From Ashinkailepas kermadecensis (lineage: Eukaryota > Arthropoda > Thecostraca > Neolepadidae): a stretch of 64,000 nt of DNA. Positions 22,322 to 62,273 of this stretch are shown here, one piece after another. The DNA is taken from NCBI GenBank assembly GCA_034440615.1, contig JAOTOM010002300.1, forward strand, positions 1 through 64,000, read 5' to 3'. The notes below the pieces were generated by a model, which saw nothing but the letters and a program-made list of their open reading frames with translations, made no database searches and was not told where the DNA came from. A program made the position numbers and the translations under genes. Positions within the stretch are counted from its first letter, which is position 1. Every line of letters begins with the position of its first letter.

Positions 22322-22328
22322 TGTGATG

Positions 22329-22376
22329 TGTGAATGATCAAAACTGGTCAAAGTGCCCTAAAGCCCAAATAACTAA
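22329..22376 (+). mobile_element. Ultrashort TGGGCGC element, copy 1 (diverged)
   Basis: It ends ctaaagcccaaataactaac, the family tail, after a diverged 5' part. Flanking 7-bp direct repeats tgtgatg lie at 22322-22328 and 22384-22390, which is weak alone but consistent with the other copies. Confidence 0.6.
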
Positions 22377-22689
22377 CTTGTTTTGTGATGATTGTCACTC
22401 AAGGTTCTTGAAATGAGCTTTTAGGTGCATGGAAGCTTTCAGCAATGCAACTTTTTCATTTGCAGCAAACATTGGCAAGATCTAATATAAACCATAGGTA
22501 TGAGTTCCAGAACCAAGATTGCTTAATTGTCACAATGTTCAATTTATTGTTGTTTTTGTGTGTTAAATGTGCAACATCAGAAGGGGTATGGTGAAACACT
22601 AAAACTGCCATGGAAATGGTATATTTTGTAATGCATTGTAGTTATTTTCTCAATCCAGGACAAAGTTGGAGATGCACTGGTGCTACATC

Positions 22690-22875
22690 TTTTCACCCAT
22701 AAATTATCCAGAGAATGGCTGTCCCTTTTTCACCCATAAGTTATCCAGAGAATGGCTGTCCCTTTTTCACCCATAAGTTATCCAGAGAATGGTTGTCCCC
22801 TTTTCACCCATAAGTTATCCAGAGAATGGTTGTCCCTTTTTCACCCATAAGTTATCCAGAGAATGGTTGTCCCCT
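22690..22875 (+). repeat. 37-bp minisatellite, five units
   Basis: Units contain ttcacccataagttatccag and agaatggctgtcccttt with few differences. Confidence 0.9.
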
Positions 22876-23139
22876 GTTCTCACTGGAAGGTTGAATGCTG
22901 TTTGACAATGCTTGGAAACATGGTTGTATGCAAATCCTCAAAACCTAATGGAAAGTAGAGACATAAGTTTCTGGTGCCACATACAGGAGGAAGATGATGG
23001 CTCCCTTGGAGGACATGGCTGCACCTGCAATGTGAGCTGTCTAGCTGAAGGTGCCCCTCTCAACTGAAGTTGGCATCCCTGTGGAAGGTCTGAGTGCACC
23101 CCTCAAAATTGTATTGATCAGTGATGCTCCTCCAAGGAT

Positions 23140-24790
23140 ATAGTGCCCCAGTGTTTCTCCCAATCAAAATTTCTGGCTGGTTTGGTTATGATTGTGAATA
23201 ACATTGAGGTAGGGCTGAGGAAAAGGGTGTTCAAATTTGCTAATGACATCAAATTGGTAGGAGTGGCTAACAGTAGTGAGCAATCTAGTAATATTCAACT
23301 AGACTTGGAGGACTTAAAAAAAGTGGGCTGATCAATGGCAGATGTCTTTCAACTATGAAACATGTAAGGTTATGCATATTGGGTCTAGAGGTGAGATTTT
23401 TCAGATATACAATGGGAGGTAGGAGAATGGATGTAACTGAAGGGGAAATATATTTGTGTGTTGGTTTCAAATGATCTTAAACCAGAAAAATAAACAATGC
23501 ATCTCAGCAAGGAACAGGGCAATCAGAATGCTGGGAATCATTAATAGGAGTGTGAGGTATAAGAGCAAAGAAGTGATGAAAATGCCATACTTGGCCCCAG
23601 TGCAACCCCACTTAGAATGTTCTGTACTGGCATGGAGCCCCTATTTAGAAGAAAAAAAAGATCTAGATGTGCTAGAAAGAGTGCGGCGCAAAGCCACTAG
23701 ATTCATCAGGGACTAGGTAACTTAGAATATGGTGAAAGACTTACGGCATTAGATATGCACTTACTCAAGTATAGGAGATTAAGGGGTGATATGATTGAAA
23801 TATGGGTACTAAATGACCTCGTAGTCAGCACGCACTTAAGCCCAAATAACAAACAGATATGATTGAAATATATAAAATTATTAAAGGGTTAGATCAGGTC
23901 AATCTGAATGATGCCCTTCTATTTGGACTATCATATAGGGTCATCAATTCAGGTTAGACAAATCAAGGTGTAAGGCAGTTAAGTGACAACATGTCTTCAG
24001 TCAAAGGATTGTTGATCAGTGGAATAGCTTGCCTGCTGATGTTGTGAGGAGTCCCTCGTTGAATGTATTTAAAAATAGGATGGACAACTATTTCAGGCTG
24101 CAAAATCTTGTTTTTGAGTTCCAAGGGATGGTGGATGGGGTCATATTTATGCTAAGTGGGTGTGCACTGTACAGGCCCCTTTAGGGAGGTGTGGATTGAG
24201 TCTGAAAATTATTGGTAGGGCACTCAGGTCACATTTGTTACATGAGATCAAGTGAATAGGGCAGGGTAGGTAAGGTAGAAAGACATTGAGGAGTGTGAGG
24301 GATGCTGGTCCCTGTGGTATTGTTGAAACTTGGACTGTTAGGTTTTTGATCATGCTAATAAATTGAGTATTACACGAGCTATATAGGGTATATTATACTC
24401 CTAGTATTATATTATACTATATAGCGTGTACCTAGCAGTGGATTCAGCACCTTCCTTCAGGATGTGACGCTGATGAGATTGGCTATGGTAGCACAATGGG
24501 GCATGATTGGAGGAGTTTGGAATTGTTAAGGAGTGTGCTACGCAATATCAGGTGAATGGTGCTAGATAGGCTGAGACATATAGTTCCCTTGGAACTTCAG
24601 ATAATGGATTGATTGTGGTGTGAGCATGTACTTTTCTGATATCTTTTCTAGATAGGCTTAACCAGGATGGGCTCCCGTGGCTCTTATTAAGCCTTAAAAC
24701 TTTATGAACTCTATGATATATTGGCTTCAGTGGCTAAGCTAAGATAGGTTATATCAGATAAAGCTGGTCTTGGTTATGTTAGGTATTTTT
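23140..24790 (+). mobile_element. Degenerate CR1/Jockey-type LINE fragment, copy 2
   Basis: The translation gives the reverse-transcriptase segment NNIEVGLRKRVFKFANDIKL (the FADD box has become FAND), then SARNRAIRMLGIINRSVRYK, VQPHLECSVLAWSPYLEE, LERVRRKATRFI and later PSLNVFKNRMDNYF. These are typical of the C-terminal RT region of CR1/Jockey-type non-LTR elements. Several stops and shifts mean it is inactive. The 3' part (24380-24790) includes a tail with gcttaaccaggatgggctcc and gtggctcttattaagcc, repeated at other LINE ends in the window. An ultrashort element is inserted at 23804. Confidence 0.85.
23788..23871 (+). mobile_element. Ultrashort TGGGCGC element, copy 2, with 16-bp TSD
   Basis: A 52-bp insertion (23804-23855) beginning gggtactaaatgacc and ending aagcccaaataacaaaca. 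It is bounded by the 16-bp direct repeat gatatgattgaaatat at 23788-23803 and 23856-23871. It interrupts the LINE coding region, and the related LINE copies at 20112 and on the - strand near 36645 lack it. Confidence 0.9.
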
Positions 24791-26138
24791 AGGTGGATTA
24801 TGTTATTGTCAACTCTCCTGGCACCCCAAGGAAGAAAACCACAAGTCCCTTGTGCATTTATTGCAGCCTATGCCTCTATACCCATGGGCATTTGTGATAC
24901 ATGAAGATGCAATTCAAATGAGAAATGCTGTGATTATCTCTGATAGGAAATTGAGCTGATCAGAAGCATAGGGACGAAAATTGTACTGATCCAAATGAGG
25001 ATGTGTGTTTTTCGTCCTTGGGATGGCAGCCTCCTGCTTATCTGTGTCAAGAACTACTGTTGCAATTACTACCTGATGCTCATTCAACTGATTGGACTTT
25101 GGTTTAAGATTGATGAAGGTTTTAGACATATGTTTTGAAATGTACAGTGGGTCAGTTATCTCTTTCATATATATTTGTTTCATGAGTTGAAATTCTATTT
25201 TGTGGTGGATCCAGATGCAGAATTAGGGAGGCATGTGAATGCTGCCCCATTATTTATAATAAAGATGCATTTTTTCCAGCTGAAGGGGCTAACAATGCAT
25301 ATGAACAAGCATTGCACTTGGTACTCAGGGATCCATTCCTGTGATAATACCCTCATATTTAGCAAAGTAGGTGTATTTTCACCATCTGAAGGGGCTCAAT
25401 GAAGCCATTATGATAACAGAGTATTGTCCCTATTTCAAACCAGAAGTCTGTACCTATTATAACATCCTCAATGTGAAATAACCTGGCAACAACCACACCA
25501 CAACTACTTCATCTGCTACCAAAATCGGTGTATAAAAAGTCCATTGTTGTGCTCCATACCATTCATAGTTGATCTTGGACAGTTTTGCCACCTTGTTCCA
25601 CCTTGATCACAGTGAAATTTATGTTGCTCTATGAGATACAATTCACAGAACTTTCTGTATCCAAATGTGGGCTCTAGTCCCACATGGAGTTGAGTATTTA
25701 CATGGCTTATTCCGGCTGGCAATGTGAATAAGGTCGGATTCCCTCGGTCGTGGCAGTGTTTCGACAGCAAACCCAGCGTCCTGCTCAGGTATGGATGTCA
25801 TTCGTCCGGAGTCGCAGGATGCAGCTATGGTGTGGGTGTATGTGCAGCAACCTCCGACTGGACCGGTATCTGTTATAATACATTATTTGTTGCAAATGGG
25901 CAAGTTACATGAATCTAAGTGTTAGCCAGTGTAGTTGTCTATGAGCACGTGCTTAAACAATCCCAGTTTTTTTTTGTGTGGATCCCTATGTCTATCATCA
26001 CCATGTCTCTCTCTCTCCCTCTCTCTATGTGACCATTAAGTCTTGTTACAGTTTGGCGTTTGTCATAAGTATAGCATGGTATGCCATAGCCCAGTGCATA
26101 TGAGAGCATGCATTTTTAGTTAAGCATCTATTACTACT
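24791..26138. other. AT-rich non-coding stretch
   Basis: No exon with recognisable similarity and no structured repeat. There is a short CT-rich run near 26010. Confidence 0.4.
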
Positions 26139-26226
26139 ACAATAGCTCGGTTGGTTAGAGTTCTGGCCTGCATTTGCATCCCATGTCTTGACAATACTGG
26201 AATCAGATTGCTTCACTCATTTGCAT
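26139..26226 (+). mobile_element. tRNA-derived SINE, family 2, head fragment
   Basis: A tagctcggttggttagagtt segment followed by ctggcctgcatttgcatccc, then a degraded B box. It matches the head of the fuller copy at 55160 (tagcgcagttggttagagcg, ctggcctgcactggtctccc). Confidence 0.65.
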
Positions 26227-26764
26227 CAGAAGAAGTCGACGTGCCCCATATAACGATGGGGGTTACATCAGAATGTCAGCATCTCAAAGCCTCAAATCCA
26301 CATTACCCTGAATCTCACCAATCATTCAAATCCCCGAGCACCTCAGCGCCCAGAATTGGCGAAAATAGCCTTATGAGTGAACTCAGTACATTAGCATCCC
26401 ATACAGCAGAATGCTTCAATGCTGATCACTTCTGATGCTTCAAAACCCCGACATCGTACAACTTGTCATTTCTCAAATCCCCAGGGCTTCAAAGTGCCAT
26501 ATGCTTCAAAACCCCGAAATCAGCTGGCAACGATGATGGTGAAGCAAACTACTTGGTACTGTATTGCGTTACGAAATGCGCCTCGACTCTCTTAGAGCAT
26601 CATGTAAACTAGGGATAACCGGCTGAGTATTTCAGACTTGGAAAATTGCTACTCACTTCTTGATTCTTAGCAGCCATGTGTATGTTTGATTTGCGTTGGT
26701 GCGTTGGTTGGTGAGTTGGTCATGAACCGTTGACGGTACTCGACATCAAGTCACCGTAGCTATA
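26227..26764. other. Non-coding stretch with atgcttcaaaaccccga words
   Basis: Short direct repeats of tgcttcaaaaccccga occur around 26430-26520. No gene is visible. Confidence 0.4.
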
Positions 26765-26940
26765 GGCGAATACTCCAGCAGTAAAGTGTCCGTCTCACAA
26801 CCGGAAGATTGTGGCTTCAAGTTCAACGTGTCTCTTCTCTTCGCCCGCGACCGATCGGAGTGAGACAGTGGCGACGCTACATGACCCAACAGTCTACGCG
26901 TCGTGAAGCCAATGCTGACTAACCAACCACCAAGCTGTAT
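26765..26940 (+). mobile_element. tRNA-derived SINE, family 1, copy 2
   Basis: Same layout as 4572-4738: gtccgtctcacaaccgg with an attgtgg stem, a degraded B box, ttcgcccgcgaccgatcgga, acgctacatgacccaacagt, and a tail with aaccaaccacc. Divergence from copy 1 is visible throughout, so the insertions are old. Confidence 0.75.
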
Positions 26941-27414
26941 AGGTAGTAGAGATTGTCTGTCTGTGTGGTACAAATGTATTGCTGTGAATGAGAGTATAGT
27001 TTGCTCGTTGTTCTCACCTGGGTGTACTCCCACACTGGACATATGCTGTGGGAACACCATGTGACGTACGGCGTTGACATTGCCAGTATCATCTACAACC
27101 AAGGTTGAAAATGTAGCCTGTTCCTGGATTTTTGGCATCCAGAACATTATTCTCTTTGAACAATTATTCTCTCCTTTTTCTCATTTGGAGGTTAAACGAT
27201 GCTGCTTGGGCACTTCATAAAGTGCCCAAAATTAACTGGAATTGCAAACTGAGTTTCTGACGTCCCAGGGTTGAAGAAAAATGTCCTCCGTATTTGACGA
27301 CCGACAATTTTTATCTCCACATCCCCAGCGGATTTGTACCGTGTGGCTCTCACAAGGTACAAATCCAACCCTGTCCACGACTCAGGCGACTCTCTTGTTC
27401 CCCGTGATATTCCC

Positions 27415-27520
27415 CGGCGACGGTCACGTGCCGTCCCAGGAGATCACCGACGACGGTCACGTGCCATTCCAGGAGATTACCGGCGACGGTCACGCGCCGT
27501 TTTGCGGAGATTGCCAGCGA
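27415..27520 (+). repeat. 33-bp minisatellite, three units
   Basis: Units contain ggcgacggtcacgtgccgtc and caggagatcacc. It lies shortly upstream of the first Hairless exon seen here. Confidence 0.85.
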
Positions 27521-27657
27521 TGCTGACTGTTGCACCATGCCCACATGTGTGTGGATATCCTCATGTATCCCACGTGGCCAGCGCCGCAGCGTACCTCCGT
27601 CTGACGCTCGCGTGTCGTGCAGCTGTGCGGCAGCGGTGCGATGTCGGCGCGCGCGAC

Positions 27658-27823
27658 ATGAAGGTCGAGGGCCGGGCGGACGTCGCGATGGAGACCGAGC
27701 TGACGCAGCTGCCGCCGGCGGCCGTGCTGTCGCCGGCTCCGTCCACCACCATGTCGCCGCCGCTCTCCGAGCCCGACAACCGCACCGACGTCGGCGGCGG
27801 CAGACTCAAGTTCTTCGGAAAGG
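27658..27823 (+). CDS. H: Hairless, exon with start of Su(H)-binding region
   Basis: Hairless is a nuclear co-repressor that binds Su(H)/CSL and recruits Groucho and CtBP to silence Notch targets. The exon ends with [10 protein letters not shown] plus one base, and the joined codon with the next exon gives [11 protein letters not shown], close to the GGRLKFFKDG that opens the Su(H)-binding domain in Drosophila Hairless. The donor is gtgagaac at 27824. The start is uncertain. I chose the ATG at 27658 because no clear homology precedes it. The frame is open further upstream, another ATG lies at 27688, and an acceptor-like cgtgtcgtgcag ends at 27623, so an upstream exon is possible. Identification rests on the three exons together. 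Confidence 0.8.
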
Positions 27824-27834
27824 GTGAGAACTGG

Positions 27835-28025
27835 CCAACCCGACCAACCGACCAACCAGTCAGCCAACCGGCCAACCAACCAACCAACCAACCAACCAAC
27901 CAACCAGTCAACCAACCAACCAACCAACCAGTCAACCAACCTACCAACTAACCACCAACCAACCAGTCAACCAACCTACCAACTAACCACCAACCAACCA
28001 ACCAGCCAACCTACAAACTAACCAG
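27835..28025 (+). repeat. (CCAA)n-type simple repeat in Hairless intron
   Basis: Runs of ccaaccaaccagtcaacc begin a dozen bases after the Hairless exon donor. The Pro-Thr-Asn-Gln frames are translations of this repeat. Confidence 0.9.
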
Positions 28026-28049
28026 CCAGCCAACCATCCAGCCTGGGGT

Positions 28050-28235
28050 GGGGGTGGCCGGGTGGTTAAGTTGTTGAGCTCTGGGTACCAAGGGTCTCGG
28101 GTTCAACACTCGCATCGCTCGGGACATTTCCCAATCCCGCGGCCCACCGGCGAAACAGTGTGGGCGGCGCCATTAGCCGTGATCGTGCATAAAGTGCGTG
28201 GTGAGCCACCCAATAAACAATAAACAACCAACCAG
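28050..28235 (+). mobile_element. tRNA-derived SINE, family 3
   Basis: The head ggtggccgggtggttaagtt, then gagctctgggtaccaagggt and tcgggttcaac (B box), looks like a leucine or serine tRNA derivative. A body with gcggcccaccggcgaaacag and a tail in caataaacaataaacaacc follow. It sits inside the CCAA-rich repeat of the Hairless intron. Confidence 0.75.
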
Positions 28236-32198: not shown

Positions 32199-32283
32199 GC
32201 AGCGAAAAATTGATTGATCGATTACTTGGGCTTAGGGGCGCATCAACTGCTACTGGTTATGTAGCGCCCATCGCAGCGAAAAA
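32199..32283 (-). mobile_element. Ultrashort TGGGCGC element, copy 3, with 11-bp TSD
   Basis: A 63-bp insertion (32210-32272). On the - strand it reads gatgggcgctacataacc, then cagttgatgcgcccctaagc and a tail ending cgatcaatcaa. Direct repeats gcagcgaaaaa lie at 32199-32209 and 32273-32283. Confidence 0.88.
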
Positions 32284-32289
32284 GAAACG

Positions 32290-33514: not shown

Positions 33515-33870
33515 TTCCCTGTGTGGCAGATGACGATGTACCCTGTTTGGCAGATGACGGTGTACAATGCATGGAAGATGACTGTGTACCCTGGGTGGAA
33601 GATGGCGGTGTATCCTGAATGGCAGATGACGGTGTGCCATGTATGGAAGATGACGGTGTGCCATGTATGGAAGATGACCATATATCCCGTGTGACAGATA
33701 ACGGTGTACCCTGTGTGGCAGATGACGTTGTGCCGTGTATGGACAGATGACGGTGTGCCGTGTATGGACAGTGGGCGCAAAATGACCAACGCAGTCGATG
33801 CGCCCTAAAGCACAAATCCACCACCACCGTGTATGGACAGATGACTGTGTACCGTGCCTGGCAGATGACG
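33515..33870 (+). repeat. Minisatellite carrying the Hairless exon acceptor
   Basis: About eleven units near 29-30 bp, containing tgtgtggcagatgacggtgt or the related catgtatggaagatgacggt. The final ggcag/atgacgg at 33860-33871 is the real acceptor and first bases of the next Hairless exon, so the earlier ggcagatgacg units are decoy acceptors. An ultrashort element is inserted between the last units. Confidence 0.88.
33758..33840 (+). mobile_element. Ultrashort TGGGCGC element, copy 4, near a splice site
   Basis: A 55-bp insertion (33772-33826) beginning tgggcgcaaaatgaccaacg and containing cagtcgatgcgccctaaag. The direct repeat ccgtgtatggacag lies at 33758-33771 and 33827-33840. Because the surrounding minisatellite itself repeats tgtatggacag, this duplication is less decisive than others. 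It ends 38 bp before the acceptor of the large Hairless exon. Confidence 0.8.
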
Positions 33871-35700: not shown

Positions 35701-35719
35701 AAGTCATAAAGTCATAAAG

Positions 35720-36750
35720 TGTTAAGGCTTAATAAGAGCCACAGGAACCCATCTGGGTTAAGCCTATCTAGAATAGATACTAGAAAAGTAGATGCTCTCT
35801 TTTTTTTTAGTGTTCTTTAGTTTTTAGTGAGCTACATATTCCAGCCTATCTAGCACCATTCACCTGATATTGCGTAACACACTCCTCAACAATTACAAAA
35901 TCCTCCAATCATACCCATTGTGCTACCATAGCCAATCTCATCAGTATCACATCCCGAAGGAAGGTGCTGAATCTGGGCGCTAAATGATAACACTTTGGTC
36001 GAAGCGCCCTTAAACTCAAATAACTAACTAAGGTGCTGAATCCACTGCTAGGTACACCCTATATAGAGTTATAAAGTGTGTAGCCTTAATAAGAGACCCA
36101 AGGGCCCATCCAGTTAAGTCTGTAAATGGAAGATACCATAAGCCTGGTAAAAAGACCCACCCCAACCATCACCACATCCTAAAGAAACCATCCATCAACA
36201 TCCCACACACCTATCAATGCCTATCTATCCTAGCCATCCAGCCCTATTCCTTTGATCCCTCTTAACACATGTGGATTGAATGTCTTACCAACAATTTTCA
36301 AATTGCATCCATACCTGCTTAAAGGGGTCTGTGCCGTGCACACTTACTTATTATAAATCTCACCCCATCCATCGCCAATTATAACTCAAAAACAAGATTT
36401 TCCTGTCTTAAAAAAATTGTCCACCCTACTTTTAAGTACATTCAATGAGGAACTCCCCACAACATCTGCAGGCAGCCTATTCCACTGATCAACAACCCTT
36501 TGACTGAAGACCTGTTGTCGCTTAACTGTCCTACACCTCAACTTGTCTAACCTGAATTGATGACCCCTATGTGACACTCTAAACTGAAGAGTGCCATTCA
36601 AATTGACCTAATCTAGTCCTTTAACATTTTTGTACATTTCAATCATGTCCCCCCTTAATCTCCTATACTTGAGTGAGTACATATTTAATGCCCTCAAGCC
36701 TTTCTCCATATTCGAAGTTACCTATTCCACTGATGAGTCTAGTTGCTTTG
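35720..36750 (-). mobile_element. Degenerate CR1/Jockey-type LINE fragment, copy 3
   Basis: On the - strand, 36601-36386 encodes HRGHQFRLDKLRCRTVKRQQ, then VVDQWNRLPADVVGSSSLNV and LKSRVDNFF, the conserved end of CR1/Jockey-type RT proteins. It continues into a 3' part (36110-35720) that matches 24380-24700. It belongs to the same family as the + strand copies at 19745 and 23140. 5'-truncated, with no functional ORF. Confidence 0.85.
35961..36042 (+). mobile_element. Ultrashort TGGGCGC element, copy 5, with 13-bp TSD
   Basis: A 56-bp insertion (35974-36029) starting tgggcgctaaatgataac and ending ctcaaataactaact. Perfect direct repeats aaggtgctgaatc lie at 35961-35973 and 36030-36042. The related LINE sequence near 24430-24480, read on the - strand, has one uninterrupted aaggtgctgaatccactg, the empty site. 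Confidence 0.95.
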
Positions 36751-37844: not shown

Positions 37845-37916
37845 CCGGGAAAGCACCTGTCGATGCGTCATAAAGCCCAAATAACTAACCAGCTAACTAA
37901 CTAACCGGGAAAGCAC
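37845..37916 (+). mobile_element. Ultrashort TGGGCGC element, copy 6 (5'-truncated), 12-bp TSD
   Basis: A 48-bp insertion (37857-37904) that starts inside the family consensus (gtcgatgcgtcataaagccc) and has a longer aactaaccagctaactaact tail. Direct repeats ccgggaaagcac lie at 37845-37856 and 37905-37916. 5' truncation with a variable tail is the signature of target-primed reverse transcription. Confidence 0.9.
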
Positions 37917-42285: not shown

Positions 42286-44471
42286 CACGCACCAAGACGT
42301 TGCTTTCGTTTCAACTGCTACGAAACCAGATAATGTGGTATTCTGGGCGATAATTCAGTTGTCGTTCTGGCAGGTCAAATATATCGGTATATCTCGTCTA
42401 CACGGTCTCACGTAATTTATATTTTCCAAACATAGATACAGTCATTTGTAATGTGAAAAAAGGATGTATAGGTGCTACACAACCGCTAGCAGTTGATGCG
42501 CACCTAATTCTAAATCATCAATACAATAGTGAAGGTGGCCCTGGTCCTTGCGTTTGCTGCTACCCCTCACTTCTAACTTTCGCCTCACGCCTTCGCAACT
42601 CTTTATTTTTTCTAGTCACCTTTTTGTCTCGCGGTGGCTTTTCTTTTGAATTAGCCTAAATTCAACACCGATGGTTGATTCGATAACTTTAGGGAACAGG
42701 TTCGACGCTAAACAAAGCTTGTTGGCGGTGCAGACTCGGAGCCAACATCTGATTGATGAGTCCATCCAGTCCAGTTCAGCAGCGGCCAATTAGTCGAGCA
42801 TTTAGCGTACTGTCGGTGCTCTGACACCACCATCCAACCATCCAACCATATTGGAACACTTGCCAGTTTGCCTGATCCGAGGATTAAAGACGGCTTCAAG
42901 TTGCAACTCGTTAGTTGGTTATTGGGGTTTAGGGGCGAAGTCCCAACTCAAACTGCGTAATGAGAGCGGATAAATTAATGCCGGCTGTCGCTCTACCGTT
43001 GTCATGCAGGAATGGCTAGTGGTACCAAACTCACGTGTCGAGCTTCTTCTTTCTGCATCTGGTTGGCTATTGGTTTTTTTAACATGTTGATTGCTTTGGT
43101 CAAAAAGCGTCACCAATCTCTCCAATTGGTGGCGGGCGAAGAACAAGCGACAGGTTGGACGCGAGCCGACAACTTTTTGATTTGGAGACGATCATCCCAC
43201 CCCAAGACTACTCACCCACTATGCGCCATACTTTAACATTGTCATTGTTGAAGTATATCTTGCTACTATCGCTTAAACATTGCATCACCGACTGCATAGC
43301 TATACTTAAATTCGATCTCCGCAACAGTAAACAAGAAGTTCAACACAAAAGGCACTTGAAATATGTGACAATGAGCGATCCAGGACTTATTGAGGGCAGG
43401 GACTGTGAGTTCTGTTGGTGTTTGTTATCATTCATGAGTACGAGCCCCCTATGAAATAATTTTTGACGTTTTTTAAAGAGTGGTATACTCTGATTTTCGA
43501 TGACCGCCTTGTCGCTTGTGTATTTGAAGATTTCGGTGACATCACAGCAGACCTGCGATGGCCAGGAGCTCGTTGCATGAGGGAAAGAGAAAGTAGCATT
43601 TTTTCTGCCATCTCTACGATCAAGGGCTCAGACAGGATTTTTTTAGTGCGGGCTCGACGAAAAAAGGACAGCAAGCAGAGACCGCTTACGACGCGCGAGG
43701 CATGCCGAATTTTTTGGTTTTACGTGATGAAAATCTCAAAATTTCTTCCTTCATGTAGTGCATATTTCATTAGTGTGGGGTTGGGGGCTTGGCTGCGCCA
43801 CTGTCTAGGATGCAGTTATTTCTACCGTTATAGAAAGTTGCATCTCGTCATCGGTGCTTCATAATCCTGATATTTTCTCAGAACAATTTGATGGTTGCAG
43901 TGAGACGCGTCTAATCATTGGGCACCCATGCTGTGCAGCTGAACTTGGGACCAATTGTTGGCCAGGGGAAATTGTCATCTTCACTTTCCCGTGCGGTATT
44001 AAAGCTAGCTCAGTTAAACATTGGTTGAGTTTCGTAATAACCTCCCAAGGCGTGTTGGTGTGCAAACTGCGATGCCTTTAATTCTAAGTCATTCTTTTAG
44101 CCCTCTAGATATGGGAGTCGCTACGGCGGAGGACGGAGGATACGCGGCCGCACATTTTGTGAAATTTGGCGTTCCGACTGTGATGTTGCATGGAAATAGT
44201 CAGCAAAAAACATTCGCGCCCCCCTATCAAAAATACATGGCGATTCCCATGTCTCTAAACAACGCTTGTACACCAATCGACAATAATTCCACATTTTCTC
44301 TGATGAAATAAATGTTTTGGAAACGTCAAGCAATATCAACATTTTCGTATACAAATTCGTATAAAGTGATGCAGATGGCTGGTAATCAAAGCTGCCAGCA
44401 TGTTAAGTTCCCACAATGGACGTGGAACATACGCGCTGCGACATTGTCTTCACCTTCACCTCCTGTTGCAG
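42286..44471. other. End of Hairless last intron
   Basis: No exon is recognised until the acceptor. A possible truncated ultrashort element in reverse lies near 42911-42942 (ggttattggggtttaggggc) with only a weak duplication. The intron ends in a C/T-rich tract and tcctgttgcag at 44461-44471. Confidence 0.5.
42911..42942 (-). mobile_element. Possible ultrashort TGGGCGC element, copy 7 (truncated)
   Basis: On the - strand it reads gacttcgcccctaaacccca and ataaccaactaa, resembling the family 3' half. The flanking caactc repeat is only six bases, so target duplication is doubtful. Confidence 0.5.
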
Positions 44472-47182: not shown

Positions 47183-48479
47183 TATGCTTTTGGGGTGGCA
47201 AGTGCCCCTTCAATATTGGTTTTTCCCCCCAATAATTTCAACTTTTAACAGGAACCTATTGAGTGTGCCCCTCCAATCCATATGGGTCTTCATGTATTTT
47301 GGACCCCCCTCATCACCAATAATTTTCAGAAATATATGCCCATGTGTCTGCTGCTTTGGTCATATAGTGTTTCCAATCTCATGCCAATTGGTTGTGCATG
47401 AACAGTAGTGACATGTTAGGCTAGAAATTGACAACAGTTCTGTTCGGGGATAGTCATCCATCATCCCAAAAGTTGTTGATTTGGAGACAATATTTCACCT
47501 AGCTGGAAGTAATTTTTGTAAATTGCTCAATATCCTCAATAATTCTTATTCCATCCTTTCCTGCTCATAGACTCAAAATAGGAAACAAACTTTTAAAAAT
47601 TGAATTTGTTAATGAAGGATAGGTTTTCTTGTGGCCAGTAATTTTATGCTATAGGTGTTGGCCCCAAAAACCATATCCATTCCAAAATTGGAATGAACAT
47701 TTTATGTCCTCCATTTTTTTATTCAGCAATTTTCAACCCCAATGCTTCTTTTTGACAGTATTCACCGATACCTGAGGTGTAAATGTATTTTCAGATGCTG
47801 TGGTTAGGTACATGGGTTGGATTTGTGCTTTGTAATTGTAGATGTGGAGAGGAAAGTTGATTGGTAATTGAATATGGGGGCAATATTTTATCCAAGTGTG
47901 CAACATCAAACTATCCCTTCTCATGAATCTGAAGCACTTCATCATAGGTCAGTGCATTGCCAAACAGCACCATTTGACCTCAAAATAAGACAATGTCTAG
48001 ATTCTGAAGATTCAAATAATGTTTGAGATTTCCCAAGAAATAGTAGCAGCCTATTTTTCCCAATCCTGTTGTCTACCTGTAGACTACTCACCACCACATG
48101 CTACTTGATGGCTTTTACTTCAGTATACACTACCTTACTCCTTGGTGTGTGCAAGCATTCTCCAGCTGACATATTTGCATCCTAATCAAAATGCAATTGA
48201 GATTTTCATGATTTGCTGAGTGGTTGGTAGGTTCCTGTACATTTTTGTTTGTTGGATGACTTGCAGATTAATTTGCAACCATGATGAAGTCCTCAAGATT
48301 ATGCTGATCTAACACTATATTGATCATGCCAAAATGTTGCTATATTAAATCCAAAATGTTTCAAGTGGTTTGCTGCATGCCCTACAAGTGACCGTACAAG
48401 TATTCACTGAAATTAGTGACAGAGCAAGGAAGTTTGTAATGTATGCTCAAGCACAGTATAAACACAATCTGCCAGATAA
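47183..48479. other. MTA intron 1, AT-rich part
   Basis: No exon. At 47800-48010 a diverged dispersed repeat shares words with 19290-19530. Confidence 0.4.
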
Positions 48480-49609: not shown

Positions 49610-50136
49610 CAATTACACAGTTATAAATTATTCGTGAAATAGGGTGGAATATACCACTTTCTGAGCACTGAATAGACATCCTTTCCTAGGACGTATCGAC
49701 ATCGTGCTTGCTGATGTGTGCTTATGACATCTCCATGGCTTGTTCCTAAGAGTATTTAGCATATAAGTAGCATGCTTATGCAGTGGGTGCTGGATAACCT
49801 ATGCAGTTGATGTGCCCCTAAACCCCAATAACAACAGCATGCTTATGATCATCATTACATATTCATTATATCTTATGGCATAATTCCAGACACAGAGATC
49901 TGCTGATAACATGGCATTGCAATTGATGTCGTTGACATATGTATCCATATACTAGGTGTCTCAAAAATTATACCAAAAACATGCACTGATGAGTGCACTG
50001 TTGGCTCAAGTGGAGCTTGAATGACTGGAATTATATTTTAATTGGCATGCTTCCACGGCAAATTTCTACATCCTACTGCACCCATTTCGACATCTCACAC
50101 CTAACGAAAAACCGTTAGTTTAACACTGCTATTACA
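49610..50136 (+). mobile_element. hAT-like MITE, nested copy
   Basis: The element (49618-50128) starts CAGTTATAAATTATTCG and ends agtttaacactg, flanked by caattaca and ctattaca (7 of 8 bases equal). It is inserted in the outer copy and itself holds an ultrashort element at 49781. Confidence 0.85.
49769..49847 (+). mobile_element. Ultrashort TGGGCGC element, copy 8, with 12-bp TSD
   Basis: A 55-bp insertion (49781-49835) with cagtgggtgctggataacc, then cagttgatgtgcccctaaac and cccaataacaac. Perfect direct repeats agcatgcttatg lie at 49769-49780 and 49836-49847. It is third in a nest: LINE, MITE, MITE, ultrashort element. Confidence 0.92.
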
Positions 50137-53075: not shown

Positions 53076-54309
53076 AATGGAATTATTGACCTGAACATAT
53101 ATCTCATTTCCCAAAAAGTGAACCTGTCCAGGCCAGTGCAGTTTCCAATTGGCATGAATGGGCTATGTTTATGTAGTGGTCTATTTTGGTGGAGCCTTTA
53201 TTGGACATTGAACTCTCAGAATACCTTTTTATTTGGCAGTTGTATGTCAAATGAGCAGCTTAGACAATTGTGAAGTGTTTGCACATATCACACTAACATT
53301 TGTTAGCATATGTGGCAAAGAGGTTGACATGCTGCCTTGTGGAGCCAATTTTTGGGCATTGGTGCTGGCTTTGGCATAACAGTGCCCCTTAACGGCATTA
53401 ATTGTGTTCGATTAACTGTGCAGGCAAAGCAGAAAATTGCTTGGGGTGGATAGCACTCAAACCCACCTTGCAGTTGGCAGACAGACACAGTACCACTCTA
53501 CTGTTTGCCCCCTATTTGAACAGTTAGCGAGTTATTTTGGCTTGAAGGCACTTCAACCAGAATTGATAATTTGTGCCCGTCATTGTCTGGTGTGTATATA
53601 ACAAATGTGCATGGATATGAATATGTGCTATGTGCAATGTGCAATATATATATATATATTTATATATATATATATATACATATACATATACATATATCAT
53701 TCCACCATTATCAATATGATTGATCAATTTATTCAATTTAATCAATATGATTAACAGCAGATAATCCACATGAACCATTTCAGTCTGATTTCGAAGAAAT
53801 GTGGAATATGCTGCACCCATCTTTGAAGGCATATCATATTTTCAAAGCACGAACAAAATTGCCAGGTGTCCTGTTTGGAATCTGTTTGCCAACCTTGTTA
53901 CTATGATATTTGATATTCCTGTCAATTTGCTGTGGTAAGTTAGTCCTTATACATGAACTCATAGTGTGGTTTTGAGGAGGTGCTCTTAGTTGTACCCCCA
54001 TTATATTTAGTTGACTGTCAGATAATGTGCAACTATGTTCCTTCTGTGTTGCATGCTCCCTGTGCTTGTCACTGAATATGTTAATCCATTTGTTTTTTGG
54101 TGCCAATGTTTGTTTTCTTGGCGTATGACCCTCTTTTGGTTGGATATAACTTGATATGTTGGGATAGTAATGGTCGTACCATGCCTTGATGGCCTGGAAT
54201 TTATAACGTACCTTACATTAAAAAAAATCACCCAATGATAATGTTTAATTATTTTCTGTTTCAAGGGCACTTGAGCTTAACACAGGTTAAGCACCTTGCT
54301 GTCTTGAGA
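53076..54309. other. MTA intron 1, AT-rich part
   Basis: Contains a (TA)n stretch at about 53646-53690 followed by tacatatacat repeats. No exon is recognised. Confidence 0.45.
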
Positions 54310-54368
54310 AGAACATTGCTATGTAACCTTTGCAGTCGATGCTCCCCTAAACTACAATTGAGAACATT
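54310..54368 (+). mobile_element. Ultrashort TGGGCGC element, copy 9 (5'-truncated)
   Basis: A 43-bp piece (54318-54360) with taacctttgcagtcgatgct and cccctaaactac, bounded by agaacatt at 54310-54317 and 54361-54368. Diverged but with the correct order of parts. Confidence 0.7.
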
Positions 54369-55509: not shown

Positions 55510-56733
55510 AAAGGTTCAAGCCGCTGTCGCTATTGGTTTGTCTATTATTTCACAAGAAAACAGGAGAGATCCTTCGACTCACAAACTAATGCCATACATC
55601 TGATTGAATGCATCTTGGTCGCATAAAGCCAGTAAGGTATAACATAAAATTAATGCTGATGTGCTTATCATCTTGCAAGCTTTCATCCCACGTCATTGCA
55701 GATGAATTTTTGTGCGCCACGAGTGATCTCCGTATGTAGATGTGTTCTCCAGAAGCAAATTAGAATACTTTTGTAAAAATGACCTGCGAGCAATTATCCC
55801 AAATCGTCTATGTCGGCCATTGTGAATGACAATGGTGCACATTTTTTTATCGTAAAGTTGCAGATTTTTTCGGTTTCGATTCGAGAGAGTAGTTATTTTG
55901 ACAACGTGCTTTTGTATGTGGTTTGGGAATAATGGGATTGAAACAAGTGGAATATAAAAATGTCAAGAACGTGCGATGGAGTCATAGTTTTCTTTTATAA
56001 CTGTATTGCATTATTACTTGAATGACATCCAGGTTTAATAACTCAGTTAAGGCTTGGCAATTTCTAGCAAAGAGCAACACAGTTGCATTATGTGATCATG
56101 AAACAGCACCAGCCAATGTTCCGATGACAGAAATGGCAGGGAGCTTTTTCGGAACGGAGCGGGGCAATTTGCTGGGTGACAAAGGTCCGGGACCAGACGT
56201 CCGTGCCATGCCGAATGTGCTCTAGCCCGTCCCGTGCAGCATGGCTGCTCTCCATATGTTATCATATTAATCGTAGTTGAAGAGTGTAAACCCATTATTA
56301 ATCTTGTGAGTTGTCCCCAGGGGGTGCCCCCCAACTTTTTAGTCCAATAAAAAAAGGGAGACGCTTGCCCGACCAATCAGCTGTTTGACGACTCGGGTCT
56401 GGACAATGGTAAACAAACATATTTTGTTTTAGTGGGCGAAACCGGTGACATTCACACAACCAAATTTGTTGCCTTGTAGGGACATTGTGATAAGTAGTAT
56501 TAAAGATCAAGACATGTCTTTGTAGAAAATTAGCACGAAAAAATAAAATAGAATATAAATAAAAGCTTCCACAATTTTTCCCTCCACTTTTTTCCACCGA
56601 TGGCGGAGGTTGAATGTTGGCTCAAGTTTATAGAATTGATGATCCTCTAAGGTTCCTTTTTGCGGAGCGTTTACCTGCAGTACCGTTGTCCCCCAGTTGA
56701 GTTGCTATTGTAACGCATGCCTAAATATTGTAG
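55510..56733. other. MTA intron 2, unique part
   Basis: No exon or known repeat is recognised. Confidence 0.4.
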
Positions 56734-57232
56734 CCACACAGCAGAGATCAATTATGTATGAAATATGGTGGAATATACCACTTCATGAGCACTGAATAGA
56801 CATTCCAAACTGCTATTGACATCGTTACATTGCATTACATTGCAGTGTTGCATTACAGAAGGAACGTACCTGTAGTCATTCAGAGCTTCTAGGAATGTGT
56901 TTATGAAGTCTCCACAATCACTATGGATTGTGACACACAAGCATTTCGTACCACAATTCCATGCAAAGGGATTACCTATGATGTGGTCCGCTATGCAATA
57001 TCATGTGTTGATAGAACTGTATCGTTATCATTAATATAGTTATCCCTATGTTAGGTGTTTCTCAAAATAAGCGAAGAATATATACTTATGAGTACACTTG
57101 CGACACAGATTTGGTTTCAAGGACAGAAGCGACTTCTTTCAGATGTTTCCATGACCAATTTCTACATCCTACTGCACTCAGCTCGACTTCTCACACCTAA
57201 CGAAAAGCCATCATTTTCACACGGCCACGCAG
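56734..57232 (+). mobile_element. hAT-like MITE, solitary copy 2
   Basis: A 483-bp element (56742-57224) starting CAGAGATCAATTATG and ending tcattttcacacgg, flanked by ccacacag and ccacgcag (7 of 8). It shares gtggaatataccacttc, gattacctatgatgtggtc and cgacttctcacacctaacg with the other copies. A 60-bp piece of it (56836-56895) recurs outside at 57940-58000. Confidence 0.88.
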
Positions 57233-57565
57233 TGAGCCTATGTCTGCATTTCACATGCTGGGGTTTGTTTAGTTGCATTCCTAATTTCGTTATTTCCAAA
57301 TTGCTTACCAAGTGAAGTACGTAAGCACCCCGAAGTCAGGAAATACGCACAAATATCACCAGGGCCCTTACGCCCACACCCATACGGGATAAAACGAAGT
57401 ACAACCAGATTGAGATATATATTTGATCTAAGTGAAGATACAATACCATTAACACATGTATAGAAAAGTTGTAAAGCGCATTTGCATGGTTACACTCAAA
57501 AATATTCACTCAGTTCCATGCACCCTCTCACAAAAATACTACCTACCTAACCATGTTCACAGGGT

Positions 57566-57720
57566 CATATGGGTGGGCCAACAAAGACAGCTGTCAGTTT
57601 GTCGGTATGGGGCAGAACACACCAAACGCCGCACTTGATGCCATATGGGTGGGCCAACAAAGACAGCTGTCAGTTTGTCGGTATGGGGCAGAACACACCA
57701 AACGCCGCACTTGATGCCAT
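57566..57720 (+). repeat. 76-bp tandem duplication
   Basis: Two identical-looking copies starting catatgggtgggccaacaaa. Either a very young duplication or an assembly artefact. Confidence 0.92.
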
Positions 57721-59457
57721 CAAGCAACGGAAAATATTACCCACATGATTATGTAATGTTGAACCCTTCGTGATTTCAGGTACACCACTAAAAAAGAAGT
57801 AATTCCGGGTAGGAGAGAGCCACGGCGTGAACCTTTTTCCGGGAGTGAACATATGAAAGCGTAATCACATGTTTCAATGCTGTCTTCATCCGGTATCTTT
57901 CAATTTCATATAGCTGCATCGCATCTGCTGCCTACGAAATTACATTGCAGTGTTTCATTACAGAAGGAACGTACCTGTAGTCATTCAGAGCTTCTAGGAA
58001 GGCTTTAACCTGGTGATGTTCCCTCATTGGTTTATAAATATACAATTGTCGATCTTGGTTTAACTGAAGAAAGTTATATTATATATCTGTAGGAAATTAT
58101 ATCATGTTCAGTTTCCCAATATTTGACCATTGGGACAGCCGGTTGAAATCTCTTTGAAGCGCATCGACATTTGCTATGCAATACATTTTCGGCGAAATTT
58201 TGACGTCTACGAACATGAGACGTGGAGAGTGTATCTCAGCCAGGACAGCGCGAGTATAGGGCGCCTATGCATGTATAGTATAGACGAGTATAGGGCGCCT
58301 ATGCATGTATAGTATAGACGAGTATAGGCGCCTATATATAGGCGCTGGACGAGCGAGGACAAGTGTTAAAGACACTGGTGAGGCCGAATCTTCGTGTATA
58401 TCGGTCATAACGTAAACGCTTTGCCTTGACCATTTACACAGCCACGGGCGTCGTCACGCATGGATGCAGAGCTAAGGCGACTTCGGAATGCGATGCATTC
58501 ACCAAATTGCATTGCTAACAGCTAAACTGAGAGGCGCCATACTTGTTTTGTTCTGAACTCGAGACTCTGGGATACAAACCAAGGACATTGGCCACTTGCC
58601 GTCCGAGACGGATGGTGAGTGCCGGCTGCGGTGCCGGCTGCGGTTGCGGCGCAAGGTCTATATTTAGCTGCCCGTGCACGGAAACGTGACCGCAACTTCT
58701 CAGAATGAAGATTGAGAGTACTTCAGGATTGTGTGATAAATATTGTGTGATGGAAGCTGTTAAATATCAACATGGAACATGCAGATCTTGCTCTGAGTGA
58801 GCAAATTAGAACTTGCAGTGTTGTATTGCACCTTTAATTCCTGTTTAAGGTTGCTGTCGAGTGGAAATGTCACCGAAAACCTCTTTCTTTGAGCAAAGAT
58901 TAAGGACACTGTATCAATAATATTGGTAGAAAATGCATACAGCTCAAAATTAAATGGGTACATCTGATTCTGAGTGAAGGAACTAGAACTCCAATCGCCG
59001 GAACGGAAAAGTTATTACGCTTTCAACAGCGTGACTGTCGGACCTGGCTGCTCAGGTGAACTTGTGTACAGTAGACTCGCTGGCATAGTAGACTCGCCCG
59101 CTCGGGCTTCGCGCTCCCTCGTAATAAATAATGCAAGAGCAGACGCGACGGCCAGCAGTCCCCCTTCCGTGGTACTATATATAATAGAGGGCGGTCTGGT
59201 ACTTTTCTCATTCACCAGTGGGCGCTCAGAGACGACAGATATCAGTTCCCTTTCCGTAGTACTTGGTAGACTACAGAGCCAGTCTGATGCTTTGCCATTC
59301 ATCAATGGGCGCTGTTCTCGACCGGTGAGATGGGAGACAACCCAGGTGAACGTCGTTCCAATACTTCGATCACACTTTGAGAGATCTCAGTGTAGTCGGC
59401 AGTTACGAGATCAGTTGGCTGCTCTTCAGATGTCGACTTACAGTCTGCGCCCCTGGT
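57721..59457. other. MTA intron 2, unique part
   Basis: Contains 34-bp tandem units at 58251-58345 (gagtatagggcgcctatgca). No exon is recognised. Confidence 0.45.
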
Positions 59458-59625
59458 CGTAATGCACGGCCTTCCTGCCGGGAAGCCACACCGAACAGGC
59501 GGCAGTACGTGATACACGTGGGTCAGCAAGCTGGTGCAGGCGTAATGCACGGCCTTCCTGCCGGGAAGCCACACCGAACAGGCGGCAGTGCGTGACACAC
59601 GTGGGTCAGCAAGCTGGTGCAGGCG
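59458..59625 (+). repeat. 83-bp tandem duplication
   Basis: Two nearly identical copies beginning gtaatgcacggccttcctg. Confidence 0.92.
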
Positions 59626-59662
59626 TTTTTATTTAGAACCTACCAAAAACTGCAATCAAATA

Positions 59663-59735
59663 GATCAATGTGGGCGCAAATGATGAATTCTGGTCGAAGC
59701 GCTGTAAAGTCCAAATAACTAACTGGATCAATGTG
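59663..59735 (+). mobile_element. Ultrashort TGGGCGC element, copy 10, with 10-bp TSD
   Basis: Begins tgggcgcaaatgatgaattc at 59671 and ends agtccaaataactaact. Direct repeats gatcaatgtg lie at 59663-59672 and 59726-59735 (the last two bases overlap the element start). Confidence 0.9.
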
Positions 59736-61527
59736 TAATGTAATGTTCCGTTCTTGTGAATAGATACTCTGTCAGCTTGGTTCCAGATATTCGAGAATGC
59801 TTCGTGTGTGAGTGATGGTGTTCATCTTTTTGACAACTTTGTAAAACAGACGAATGACGCTGCCGATTATTGGTCACGTTCGTGAATAATGCGTACGTCA
59901 ACACTGTCTGGCCTTCGTCACGCTTTCCGATATCTGACAGCATAGGTCTGAGCAGTTCGTCAGTCAAGTCAGGCAACACGGCCACAACTGGATCAGCAGG
60001 CTTGGCGGAAACATACTGAATGGAGATTCGTTTGTCAGGTCAGGCAACACGGTCACAACTGGATCAGCAAGTTTGGCGGAAAAGGCGCACTGTGAAACGT
60101 ACGGACGCCCGCCCCGTTATAAACCCCGACTTTATCCTTCAAACTGAAATTGAACCAGAAAAAAGTAGCTGAATCGTAAGAGTTAGCAGAAGTAGAAAAA
60201 GCGGCAAGATGCGTGATGCTCCTATTTCTGCAATTCCACACAAAAACATCGCTTATGGTTTCATCGAAGCAAACCGACTTCCGAACGCAATATTGATGTC
60301 ATGTCTCAACATTGCGTAATTTGTGGAGTTGAAGCAGCACACGTTTCACCGGAAGTGTGTTCCGTCAGAGTAACGTGAACGCCGCGGATCAGTGCGCCGC
60401 GCATTGTCTACATGCTGGCCGTGCATCACATGCGGACAGCAGGAACTTCACTTATCGAATGAAGGGTGGCGTCCAGCACGACTGGCCCACAGCAACTCTA
60501 ACTTCAGCAGCTCTGGCAACTCGTTATCGATCAGTGCCATGGATGTTGACTTGCTTCTGTCCACCTCATCGTCTTCATTTTGCTTGTGCCTGATGAGGCC
60601 GGCGTCGGCTACGGCCTCAAGCAGTTGCAGCTCCTTGGCTTCAGCTATGTGATATTCGAAACATTTATGATTCGAAGTCGAATGCCTAGCTTTCTTTGCC
60701 TAGCTTCATCGTCATGTCTGCCAACACCTTATGGCGTTCTTAGCAGTTTATTGCATGTTCTTCATTATTCATTGTCGCATAGCCCAGGATGATGCGTAGT
60801 CCTCCACATGGCCTCTCGAATGCACCTTTATTATTTCGCGTTGGCAGGAGGAGATGAGGATTGCAACATGCCCCGTTCCACCACCTATTTGAATGGTGAG
60901 CAAAATACGTATTCTGTGCCGGTGTTTTGAGCTGTCCGTTCAGAGTTGAACTTTGCCTGGTAAGCGGCGTGTTTTTTTTTTGGGGGGGGGATTGCATGTC
61001 TTTGGGCTGCGAATTATCGAGACGTCAGCCTTTTCAAATTGAGATCGATGGTTTGAGTAGAAACAACATGACTTTGTGCTCCTGCCGTGTGTTGTATTCG
61101 ACTTCGACTCAGACTATGCCGACACCAGAATCAGCGAAGGATCTGTGTGGTGAGAAGTCCTATTCCTCTCGAAAACATTGCAGCTATGTAAGGCCAAACC
61201 GACACATCTAGTTCCCACCAAATGTTGATCCTGGTATACCTGGGAACCCTGACTGACCTGGGGTGATCTTTACCCGTGACGATGTACACCCACCCCAGGG
61301 CACTTCCCCTGGTCCCCAACGTACCCGGAAGTTTTTGGAAGAGTACGCTGTACGGAGTGCCCCTCCACCACTAAAACTCGCTATTTTAGTTTATCCTGTA
61401 TGCATTTGATGTAGTTTCATTCTCATCCATATAAGTTATTTTTTTAATATATCTTGGAGTTTCATTCATCAACGTCGCAACACCTCGGGGAGCATTGTGT
61501 TGATCTTGTGTGGTGTATTTACGTACG
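59736..61527. other. MTA intron 2, unique part
   Basis: No exon with recognisable similarity. A short direct repeat (gtcaggcaacacggccacaa / gtcaggcaacacggtcacaa) lies at 59967 and 60038. Confidence 0.4.
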
Positions 61528-61602
61528 GTGCTGGTGTTTGGTTATTTGGGTTTAAGGGCGCGCCGACTACAGGGTCATTTGGCGCCCATGTGCTGGTGTT
61601 TG
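61528..61602 (-). mobile_element. Ultrashort TGGGCGC element, copy 11, with 13-bp TSD
   Basis: A 49-bp insertion (61541-61589). On the - strand it reads atgggcgccaaatgaccctg, then ggcgcgcccttaaacccaaa and taac. Perfect direct repeats gtgctggtgtttg lie at 61528-61540 and 61590-61602. Confidence 0.93.
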
Positions 61603-62190
61603 TATTCTGCATTGTACTCTCGCTATCGTCGCTAGGCGACATAACCTCTGGGTGCATAACTTATTTCTGTTTGAGTTATGACCACTTTCGATTATGTGTG
61701 ACATATGGTGATTTCATCCATATGAAGCTCACGGAAAGGAAACCATCCGCGGCATTACGATCGTGTTTGAAATAGAACTGCTGGCAAAAAACTGTTCACA
61801 TCACGATCATGACATGAGGGCAGAAGAAATTATTCGCGCAGTGTCAAACCCTCTTTCTCATATAAAAATATAAATTCCAGAACAAAATCATGGCCAGTAC
61901 CGATTTCATCCAGAATTACCAAGCCATGTCTTCCTAGGCATAGATAATGCGACAGGCATATGTCCAGCTACCTGAGCTGCTTCCTGACTGCATGCCCGTA
62001 TTGATACGATTTACGACTGATATGTCCGTCTGCAAGATGACGCGTCGTACCACCGTAGTAGTATCGCCCAACATGATACACAGCAGGATGCACCAGATCT
62101 TGTGTGTAAGAATGTACGTCCTCCCTACTCAACGCACATGTATCTTCATTTGGGGATGTTCCATGCTCCAGCTTCGTGATTTGAGTTGGT

Positions 62191-62273
62191 TACATGACTA
62201 GCCTATGGGCGCTGTATAACCAATGCAGTTGATGCGCCCTAAAACCCAAATAACTAACTACATGACTAGCCTA
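62191..62273 (+). mobile_element. Ultrashort TGGGCGC element, copy 12, with 15-bp TSD
   Basis: A 53-bp insertion (62206-62258) starting tgggcgctgtataaccaatg, with cagttgatgcgccctaaaac and ccaaataactaac. Perfect direct repeats tacatgactagccta lie at 62191-62205 and 62259-62273. It lies 257 bp before the third MTA exon. The best-preserved full-length copy. Confidence 0.95.

What the first reader, a model, noticed from the sequence alone, without database searches (positions are those of the whole stretch)
22322..62273. A family of ~55-bp retroposon-like elements with target-site duplications
I find twelve copies of a very short element, consensus TGGGCGCtaaatgacc, then a gcagtcgatGCGCCCtaaa part, then a CCCAAATAACTAACTA tail. 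Copies lie at 22329, 23804, 32210, 33772, 35974, 37857, 42911, 49781, 54318, 59671, 61541 and 62206, in both orientations. Most are bounded by direct repeats of 7-16 bp that differ at each site, such as aaggtgctgaatc, agcatgcttatg, gtgctggtgtttg and tacatgactagccta. Variable-length duplications, 5' truncation of some copies and an (AACT)n-like tail are features of LINE-driven reverse transcription. At about 50-60 bp, with no visible pol III A or B box, they are far shorter than usual SINEs. GGGCGC and GCGCCC can pair to form a small hairpin. I know of no named family like this.
Basis: partly seen in the sequence, partly recalled or inferred. Interest (0 to 1): 0.87.

Follow-up and report, generated by a model that had tools for sequence, protein, structure and literature searches.

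The report
Hairpin-only copies of a LINE tail
The 53-base hairpin and tail that end a family of jumping genes (LINEs) are found inserted on their own, often flanked by duplicated target DNA, at many places in this genome, most likely because RNA remnants of the LINE trimmed down to that hairpin were copied back into DNA.

Summary
All 12 copies exist, in both orientations, and 11 of 12 have flanking duplications (score 8 or more). An HMM adds two clear hairpin-only copies and one degenerate one. Two insertions have paralogous empty sites in the window.

Genome-wide (unnamed, 907.7 Mb), the tail 14-mer occurs 6013 times against 3 for the reversed pattern. The unit is not a stand-alone family. 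It is the 3' terminal hairpin plus (TAAC)n tail of LINEs that encode reverse transcriptase and RNase H. Of 2839 hairpin-plus-tail copies, 816 have the LINE's GTTA directly upstream. In the samples, most of the others begin within about two bases of the hairpin base.

A tRNA-Val SINE of about 170 bp ends in a similar hairpin, yet 0-1 of 100 listed tails (plus 10 of 100 in a minor subset) lack SINE body. For three LINE haplotypes 70, 73 and 26 of 100 listed rows are hairpin-only. This speaks against simple RT drop-off and favours hairpin-only LINE RNA fragments as templates for target-primed reverse transcription. No RNA data were available; the species is unidentified. Verdict: a real, striking variant of 5'-truncated LINE retroposition.

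The parts
22329..22376 (+). hairpin-only copy, slightly 5' truncated
   Evidence: HMM 28.2 bits; TSD CTTGTCCTGTGATG/CTTGTTTTGTGATG, score 8
23804..23855 (+). hairpin-only copy inside a CR1/L2-like LINE fragment
   Evidence: 41.4 bits; 16-bp exact TSD; paralogous empty site in 35712-36692
32210..32270 (-). hairpin-only copy with an (ATCA)n-like tail
   Evidence: 48.0 bits; TSD TTTTTCGCTGC; beside a tandem array
33772..33825 (+). hairpin-only copy at the end of a 24-bp minisatellite
   Evidence: 46.3 bits; flanking repeat inflated by the array
35974..36029 (+). hairpin-only copy inside a CR1/L2-like LINE fragment
   Evidence: 50.0 bits; 13-bp exact TSD; paralogous empty site near 24440
37857..37904 (+). 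5'-truncated copy with a long (AACT)n tail
   Evidence: 20.5 bits; 12-bp exact TSD
42471..42521 (+). additional old hairpin-only copy
   Evidence: 24.1 bits; no clear TSD
42911..42947 (-). 5'-truncated old copy
   Evidence: 15.5 bits; TSD not convincing (score 6)
49781..49835 (+). hairpin-only copy, CAG extra at the 5' end
   Evidence: 47.0 bits; 12-bp exact TSD
53526..53578 (-). additional hairpin-only copy
   Evidence: 21.3 bits; no clear TSD
54318..54360 (+). 5'-truncated copy
   Evidence: 18.4 bits; TSD AGAACATT, score 8
59671..59725 (+). hairpin-only copy
   Evidence: 40.2 bits; TSD GATCAATGTG
61541..61589 (-). hairpin-only copy
   Evidence: 49.4 bits; 13-bp exact TSD
62206..62258 (+). 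hairpin-only copy, same hairpin and tail as LINE copies L035 and L041
   Evidence: 56.1 bits; 15-bp exact TSD; alignment
19975..20014 (+). probable very old, degenerate copy inside a LINE fragment
   Evidence: 7.3 bits, E = 0.34, against 3.0 bits in the reversed control; extra sequence against the LINE paralog; TSD not significant
4570..4725 (+). tRNA-Val SINE whose 3' end resembles the hairpin and tail
   Evidence: 126.2 bits to the SINE; its tail 13.2 bits to the hairpin HMM
26767..26914 (+). tRNA-Val SINE, same 3' end
   Evidence: 85.6 bits; its tail 9.0 bits to the hairpin HMM
43061..43217 (-). tRNA-Val SINE, diverged
   Evidence: 68.1 bits
47356..47459 (-). tRNA-Val SINE, diverged fragment
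   Evidence: 23.8 bits

Best explanation
The short elements are the 3'-terminal hairpin and TAAC tail of RNase H-bearing LINEs, inserted alone, mostly between target-site duplications, and most likely templated by LINE RNA fragments already trimmed to the base of that hairpin. Shown: the hairpin and tail are the LINE's 3' end, short copies are discrete insertions, and in the samples their 5' ends pile up within about two bases of the stem. Predicted: the hairpin folds as a 6-bp outer stem, an internal loop and a 3-4-bp inner stem. Inferred: LINE ORF2 protein binds this hairpin, as shown for other 'stringent' LINEs (PMC4176376, passages read). Inferred: 5'-to-3' decay or cleavage removes the upstream RNA and stops at the hairpin, perhaps because ORF2 protein protects it. 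The stub would then be used for ordinary target-primed reverse transcription, and a tRNA-Val SINE has probably captured a related tail.
For: LINE identity: upstream of the hairpin, L004, L023, L024 and L035 carry long open stretches ending 78-146 nt before the tail. L023 (882 aa, open) matches RVT_1 (7.3e-35) and RNase_H (1.8e-08); L024 matches RNase_H. Relatives at 55-60% identity are listed with an EEP endonuclease too. GTTA stands directly before 816 of 2839 hairpin-plus-tail copies, against about 11 if bases were equal and random. Short unit: 88 of the 100 tail places listed were read; they gave 66 sites distinct by downstream flank, of which 14 (by eye) run on into LINE sequence and 52 do not recognisably. 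30 of 66 have a duplication scoring 9 or more, against 11 of 261 shuffled pairings. Of those 30, 18 break within about two bases of the hairpin base, 4 lie 3-6 nt inside, 5 deeper and 3 beyond. Sharp edge: for haplotype A the LINE's A at -1 is kept in 50 of 61 distinct non-LINE flanks, while -2 and beyond look random. Many sources: of 45 non-nested hairpin-only copies in the list, 32 lie within 2 edits of one of 25 LINE hairpins taken, and 9 of those LINE hairpins have at least one such copy. Against RT drop-off: of 7210 SINE tails (6963 + 247), 1 of the 100 listed lacks SINE body by eye (0 by the script's rule) and 10 of the 100 listed do, 6 more being borderline; for LINE haplotypes A, B and C the hairpin-only rows are 70, 73 and 26 of 100.
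Against: No RNA of this size was seen; no transcript data were available. The hairpin-only share varies between LINE haplotypes (70, 73, 26 of 100 listed; 61 distinct against 30 rows, 52 against 27, 26 against 74 once identical short flanks are collapsed), which a uniform decay mechanism does not predict and predicted stability does not explain (-13.6, -18.5, -14.1 kcal/mol). The preferred start differs: A(-1) for haplotype A; for B -1 is A in only 19 of 52, so T(+1) or later; for C 14 of 26. Eight of the 30 LINE-like haplotype-A rows share only about 7 LINE bases, a second start point. The SINE hairpin has a different sequence, so its behaviour need not apply to LINE hairpins; 1 of 100 still allows about 5%. 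36 of the 66 sites have no strong duplication. Places listed for A and B come mostly from smaller contigs, and host repeats amplified with a nested copy inflate the short class (28 of 73 short rows). The 12 places not read were my choice, several in repeats already seen.
Confidence: 0.5

Rival explanations
1. Reverse transcriptase drop-off: the enzyme copies the tail and hairpin of full-length LINE RNA, then falls off at the base of the hairpin to which it is bound, leaving 53-bp insertions.
For: Needs no special RNA; the edge coincides with the predicted stem; LINE copies are usually 5' truncated (PMC3747384, passage).
Against: The tRNA-Val SINE with a similar hairpin is nearly always copied through it in the listed rows; from general knowledge an enzyme blocked by a hairpin would stop at its 3' side, not after copying it all; haplotype C is mostly long.
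Confidence: 0.25
2. An independent ultrashort retroposon: short source loci make their own RNA of about 53 nt and parasitise the LINE through the shared tail, as a headless SINE would.
For: The hairpin-only share and preferred start differ by haplotype, as separate source genes would give; exact start.
Against: No tRNA or RNA-family match; short copies match several different LINE hairpin types, requiring repeated origins.
Confidence: 0.2
3. The short copies are ordinary random 5' truncations of a LINE, with no special step.
For: Shorter truncated copies (L017, L020, L043) and a longer one (L041) exist.
Against: 18 of 30 duplication-defined 5' ends lie within about two bases of one point; 50 of 61 keep -1 but not -2.
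Confidence: 0.04
4. A miniature DNA transposon with inverted ends.
For: GGGCGC/GCGCCC is an inverted repeat.
Against: Duplications range from 9 to 16 bp, with two longer matches in repetitive DNA; the inverted repeat is not at both ends; one end is a TAAC repeat; LINE continuation.
Confidence: 0.01

Closest known systems
Stringent-type LINEs with a 3' stem-loop (UnaL2, ZfL2-1, ZfL2-2; PMC4176376, passages read)
   Same: 3' stem-loop plus short repeat tail; partner SINEs share the tail
   Different: Those are L2-clade; this LINE has RNase H. Hairpin-only copies starting at the stem base are not mentioned in the passages I saw.
SINE/LINE tail pairs (PMC3747384, passages read)
   Same: A tRNA-derived SINE carries a similar 3' hairpin and tail
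   Different: The short copies have no head at all.
5'-truncated LINE copies
   Same: Share the LINE 3' end, with TSDs
   Different: The review gives truncation at various positions, 100-1,000 bp (PMC3747384, passage); here one sharp point at about 53 bp dominates.
I/Nimb-like 'tick transposon' LINEs (name recalled; no tree built)
   Same: RT plus RNase H, EEP endonuclease in relatives
   Different: Clade not tested; 3' ends of that clade not compared.
SIDER and similar short retroposons of trypanosomatids (search listing only, PMC2323293, PMC3820030; lengths recalled)
   Same: Short non-autonomous relatives of a LINE
   Different: Hundreds of bp with LINE 5' sequence (recalled); here only the 3' hairpin.

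Membership tests
5'-truncated copies of an RNase H-bearing LINE | Same 3' end as longer LINE copies | tested here: met
5'-truncated copies of an RNase H-bearing LINE | Variable-length target-site duplications and empty sites | tested here: met
   30 of 66 distinct sites and 11 of 15 window copies
5'-truncated copies of an RNase H-bearing LINE | Truncation at scattered positions | tested here: not met
   5' ends pile up at the hairpin base
SINE | Head derived from a pol III RNA (tRNA, 7SL, 5S) | tested here: not met
   No tRNA or Rfam match in the window at gathering score; no head between TSD and hairpin in copies with a TSD
SINE | 3' tail shared with a LINE | tested here: met
Stringent-type LINE 3' end | Conserved 3' stem-loop kept by compensatory changes | tested here: inconclusive
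   First inner pair is standard (GC 22, AT 5, GT 3) in 30 of 31 hairpins, but the register was chosen to favour pairing; the outer stem hardly varies and most changes there break pairs; the SINE tail folds alike with a different outer stem
Stringent-type LINE 3' end | ORF2 protein needs the stem-loop for retrotransposition | not testable with these tools
   Needs a cell or in vitro assay
I/Nimb-group LINE | RT and RNase H in one ORF | tested here: met
   L023
I/Nimb-group LINE | EEP endonuclease | tested here: inconclusive
   Listed for relatives; not in the part of L023 that was read
I/Nimb-group LINE | Clade placement by RT tree | not tested
   No tree built
MITE / DNA transposon | Fixed-length TSD and terminal inverted repeats | tested here: not met
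Known self-cleaving ribozyme or other Rfam RNA | Rfam match over the hairpin | tested here: not met
   No such match up to E = 5 in five loci; the only hit was a tRNA elsewhere in L012

The most novel reading that the evidence does not exclude
The LINE's own recognition hairpin has become the smallest known self-contained passenger: a discrete RNA of about 53 nt, tail included, with a fixed 5' end, that moves at high rate without head, promoter or coding sequence and outnumbers its parent LINE ends in some subfamilies.
Probability: 0.25. Interest if true: 0.8.

Novelty: new variant of a known kind. Interest (0 to 1): 0.6.

Why it matters
It would set a lower limit on what a LINE needs to mobilise an RNA: one hairpin and a short repeat. 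Two passengers with similar hairpins in one genome, one rarely cut at the hairpin and one mostly so, make the question of why LINE copies are 5' truncated directly testable (template decay versus polymerase drop-off). It also warns that repeats of about 50 bp can be real retroposons that length filters may miss.

Tried and rejected
Rejected: DNA transposon (variable TSDs); part of a tandem or satellite repeat (independent empty sites); source in the CR1/L2-like LINE of the window (its end reads GACTTTAT); known ribozyme; origin from the SINE tail (the hairpins are of LINE type). Ten window ORFs gave no Pfam family for nine and one sub-threshold hit for the tenth. LINE protein and tail pattern searches of viral contigs found nothing. 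A species name was sought through COX1 and never answered. Papers: ten searches; searches returned none, searches gave listings. I saw no description of hairpin-only LINE copies in those titles and abstract starts or in the passages of the two papers I opened, which does not show that none exists. The RNAalifold try inside one search returned no structure and was not used. The empty-site alignment of 23804 is ragged around the duplication; the reading of it rests as well.
Full report
Observation. A profile from eight of them finds all twelve; on the reversed window its best score is 3.0 bits against 15.5 bits or more for the twelve. It adds two hairpin-only copies (42471, 53530-53578) and a degenerate one (19975, 7.3 bits, E = 0.34). 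Two further hits belong to a tRNA-Val SINE, of which the window has four copies.

Insertion. With a simple score (matches minus two per mismatch), 11 of 15 hairpin-only copies have flanking repeats of 8 or more against 111 of 2000 random positions outside tandem arrays; leaving out the two copies next to arrays gives 9 of 13. Misses are 42471, 42913, 53526 and 19975. The clearest evidence is internal: copies 35974 and 23804 sit in two different copies of one CR1/L2-like LINE fragment, and each host copy lacks the insert that the other has. So units of 52 and 56 bp moved on their own.

Genome-wide. The genome (907.7 Mb, unnamed) holds 6013 exact tails CCCAAATAACTAAC against 3 for the reversed pattern, and 2839 of these have TGGGCGC upstream with 14-44 nt between (reversed control 0). 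Since 3 of 15 window copies carry the exact 14-mer, the whole family may number tens of thousands; that is a rough extrapolation from three.

What it belongs to. Of the 100 places listed, 88 were read; they are distinct at 66 downstream flanks. By eye, 14 of the 66 run on upstream into LINE sequence. L023 has an open frame of 882 aa with reverse transcriptase and RNase H, and L024 an RNase H match; the longest frames of L004, L023, L024 and L035 stop 78-146 nt before the tail. Database relatives at 55-60% identity are listed with an EEP endonuclease as well. GTTA stands directly before TGGGCGC in 816 of 2839 copies, where about 11 are expected if bases were equal and random. The element is therefore the LINE's 3' end.

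Why most copies are short. 30 of 66 distinct sites have strong duplications against 11 of 261 shuffled pairings; 36 have none that is strong. The 5' ends of the 30: 18 within about two bases of the hairpin base, 4 three to six bases inside, 5 deeper, 3 beyond (two of those three, L112 and L014, lie in repetitive DNA). For haplotype A (650 copies with a non-G at the first place, 100 listed), 30 rows are LINE-like and 70 are not; in 61 distinct non-LINE flanks the LINE's A at -1 is kept 50 times and -2 looks random. Eight of the 30 share only about seven LINE bases, a second start point. For haplotype B (350 copies, 100 listed), 25 are LINE, 2 GTTA only and 73 not (52 distinct); -1 is A in 19 of 52, so the start is at T(+1) or later. 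For haplotype C (131 copies, 100 listed), 71 are LINE-like, 3 GTTA only and 26 not; -1 is A in 14 of 26. The short share thus differs by subfamily, which I cannot explain. Host repeats that amplified with a nested copy inflate the raw share: in the list 28 of 73 short rows are of that kind.

One source or many. Of the 45 remaining short copies, 17 are identical to one of 25 LINE hairpins taken and 32 are within two edits; their nearest LINE hairpins are of 13 types, 9 of which have a copy within two edits. This fits repeated origin from LINE RNA better than one founder.

The internal control. A tRNA-Val SINE (found by ARAGORN in 4 of 36 loci scanned, flanking repeats read by eye) ends in a similar hairpin and an AACC-type tail. 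The likeness rests on weak HMM hits (13.2 and 9.0 bits) and on the same predicted fold with a different outer stem. Its 24-base tail occurs 6963 times with G at -11 and 247 times otherwise. In the first 100 of the former one row lacks the SINE body by eye (it is borderline, not counted, by the script's rule); in the first 100 of the latter 10 do and 6 are borderline. Headless SINE tails are thus estimated at 1-2%, with about 5% still possible on 100 rows, against 26-73% hairpin-only for LINE haplotypes. If the enzyme simply fell off after the hairpin, the SINE should show it too, unless its different stem sequence matters. I therefore prefer a template-side cause: LINE RNA trimmed from the 5' side to the hairpin, which the LINE protein would bind and protect, then used in target-primed reverse transcription. 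Binding of the 3' stem-loop by ORF2 protein is shown for zebrafish L2 elements (PMC4176376, passages); for this LINE it is inferred.

Structure. Among 31 distinct hairpins the first inner pair is GC 22, AT 5, GT 3 and unpaired once, with the register chosen to favour pairing; the outer stem hardly varies and most changes there break pairs, as in dead copies. Predicted energies are -13.6, -18.5 and -14.1 kcal/mol for haplotypes A, B and C, and -12.7 for the SINE tail.

Limits. The species is unknown, no RNA data were at hand, listed places for most patterns come from smaller contigs, and sequences were sampled rather than scanned whole. Literature was searched ten times with word searches; no hairpin-only LINE family was seen in listings or passages, which is weak evidence of novelty. 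Rechecking the calls corrected counts and wording but required no change of odds.

Noticed in passing
4570-4725, 26767-26914, 43061-43217 (-), 47356-47459 (-): tRNA-Val(cac)-derived SINE of about 170 bp, with 7210 exact 24-base tails genome-wide; probable partner SINE of the RNase H LINE.
   Followed up: partly
19900-24710 (+) and 35712-36692 (-): Fragments of a CR1/L2-like LINE (C-terminal RT motif read by eye, name recalled) that serve as paralogous empty sites for each other.
   Followed up: partly
9644-14408: Large array of ATAGACGGCGTCGGGAGCGAGCG-type units mixed with GTCTGTCT units, and many other minisatellites (112 TRF rows in the window).
   Followed up: no
L023, L035, L041 upstream of the hairpin: GTTA or TTAGTTA just before the hairpin is complementary to the TAAC tail repeats, so the LINE 3' end may close as a longer stem that hairpin-only copies have lost (one fold).
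   Followed up: no
L001 group (9 of 88 tails) and L006 group (7 of 88): Two other repeats that seem to have amplified after a hairpin-only copy inserted into them, carrying it to more places.
   Followed up: partly
49781-49783: Three extra bases (CAG) between the target duplication and the hairpin, perhaps untemplated additions at the 5' junction.
   Followed up: no
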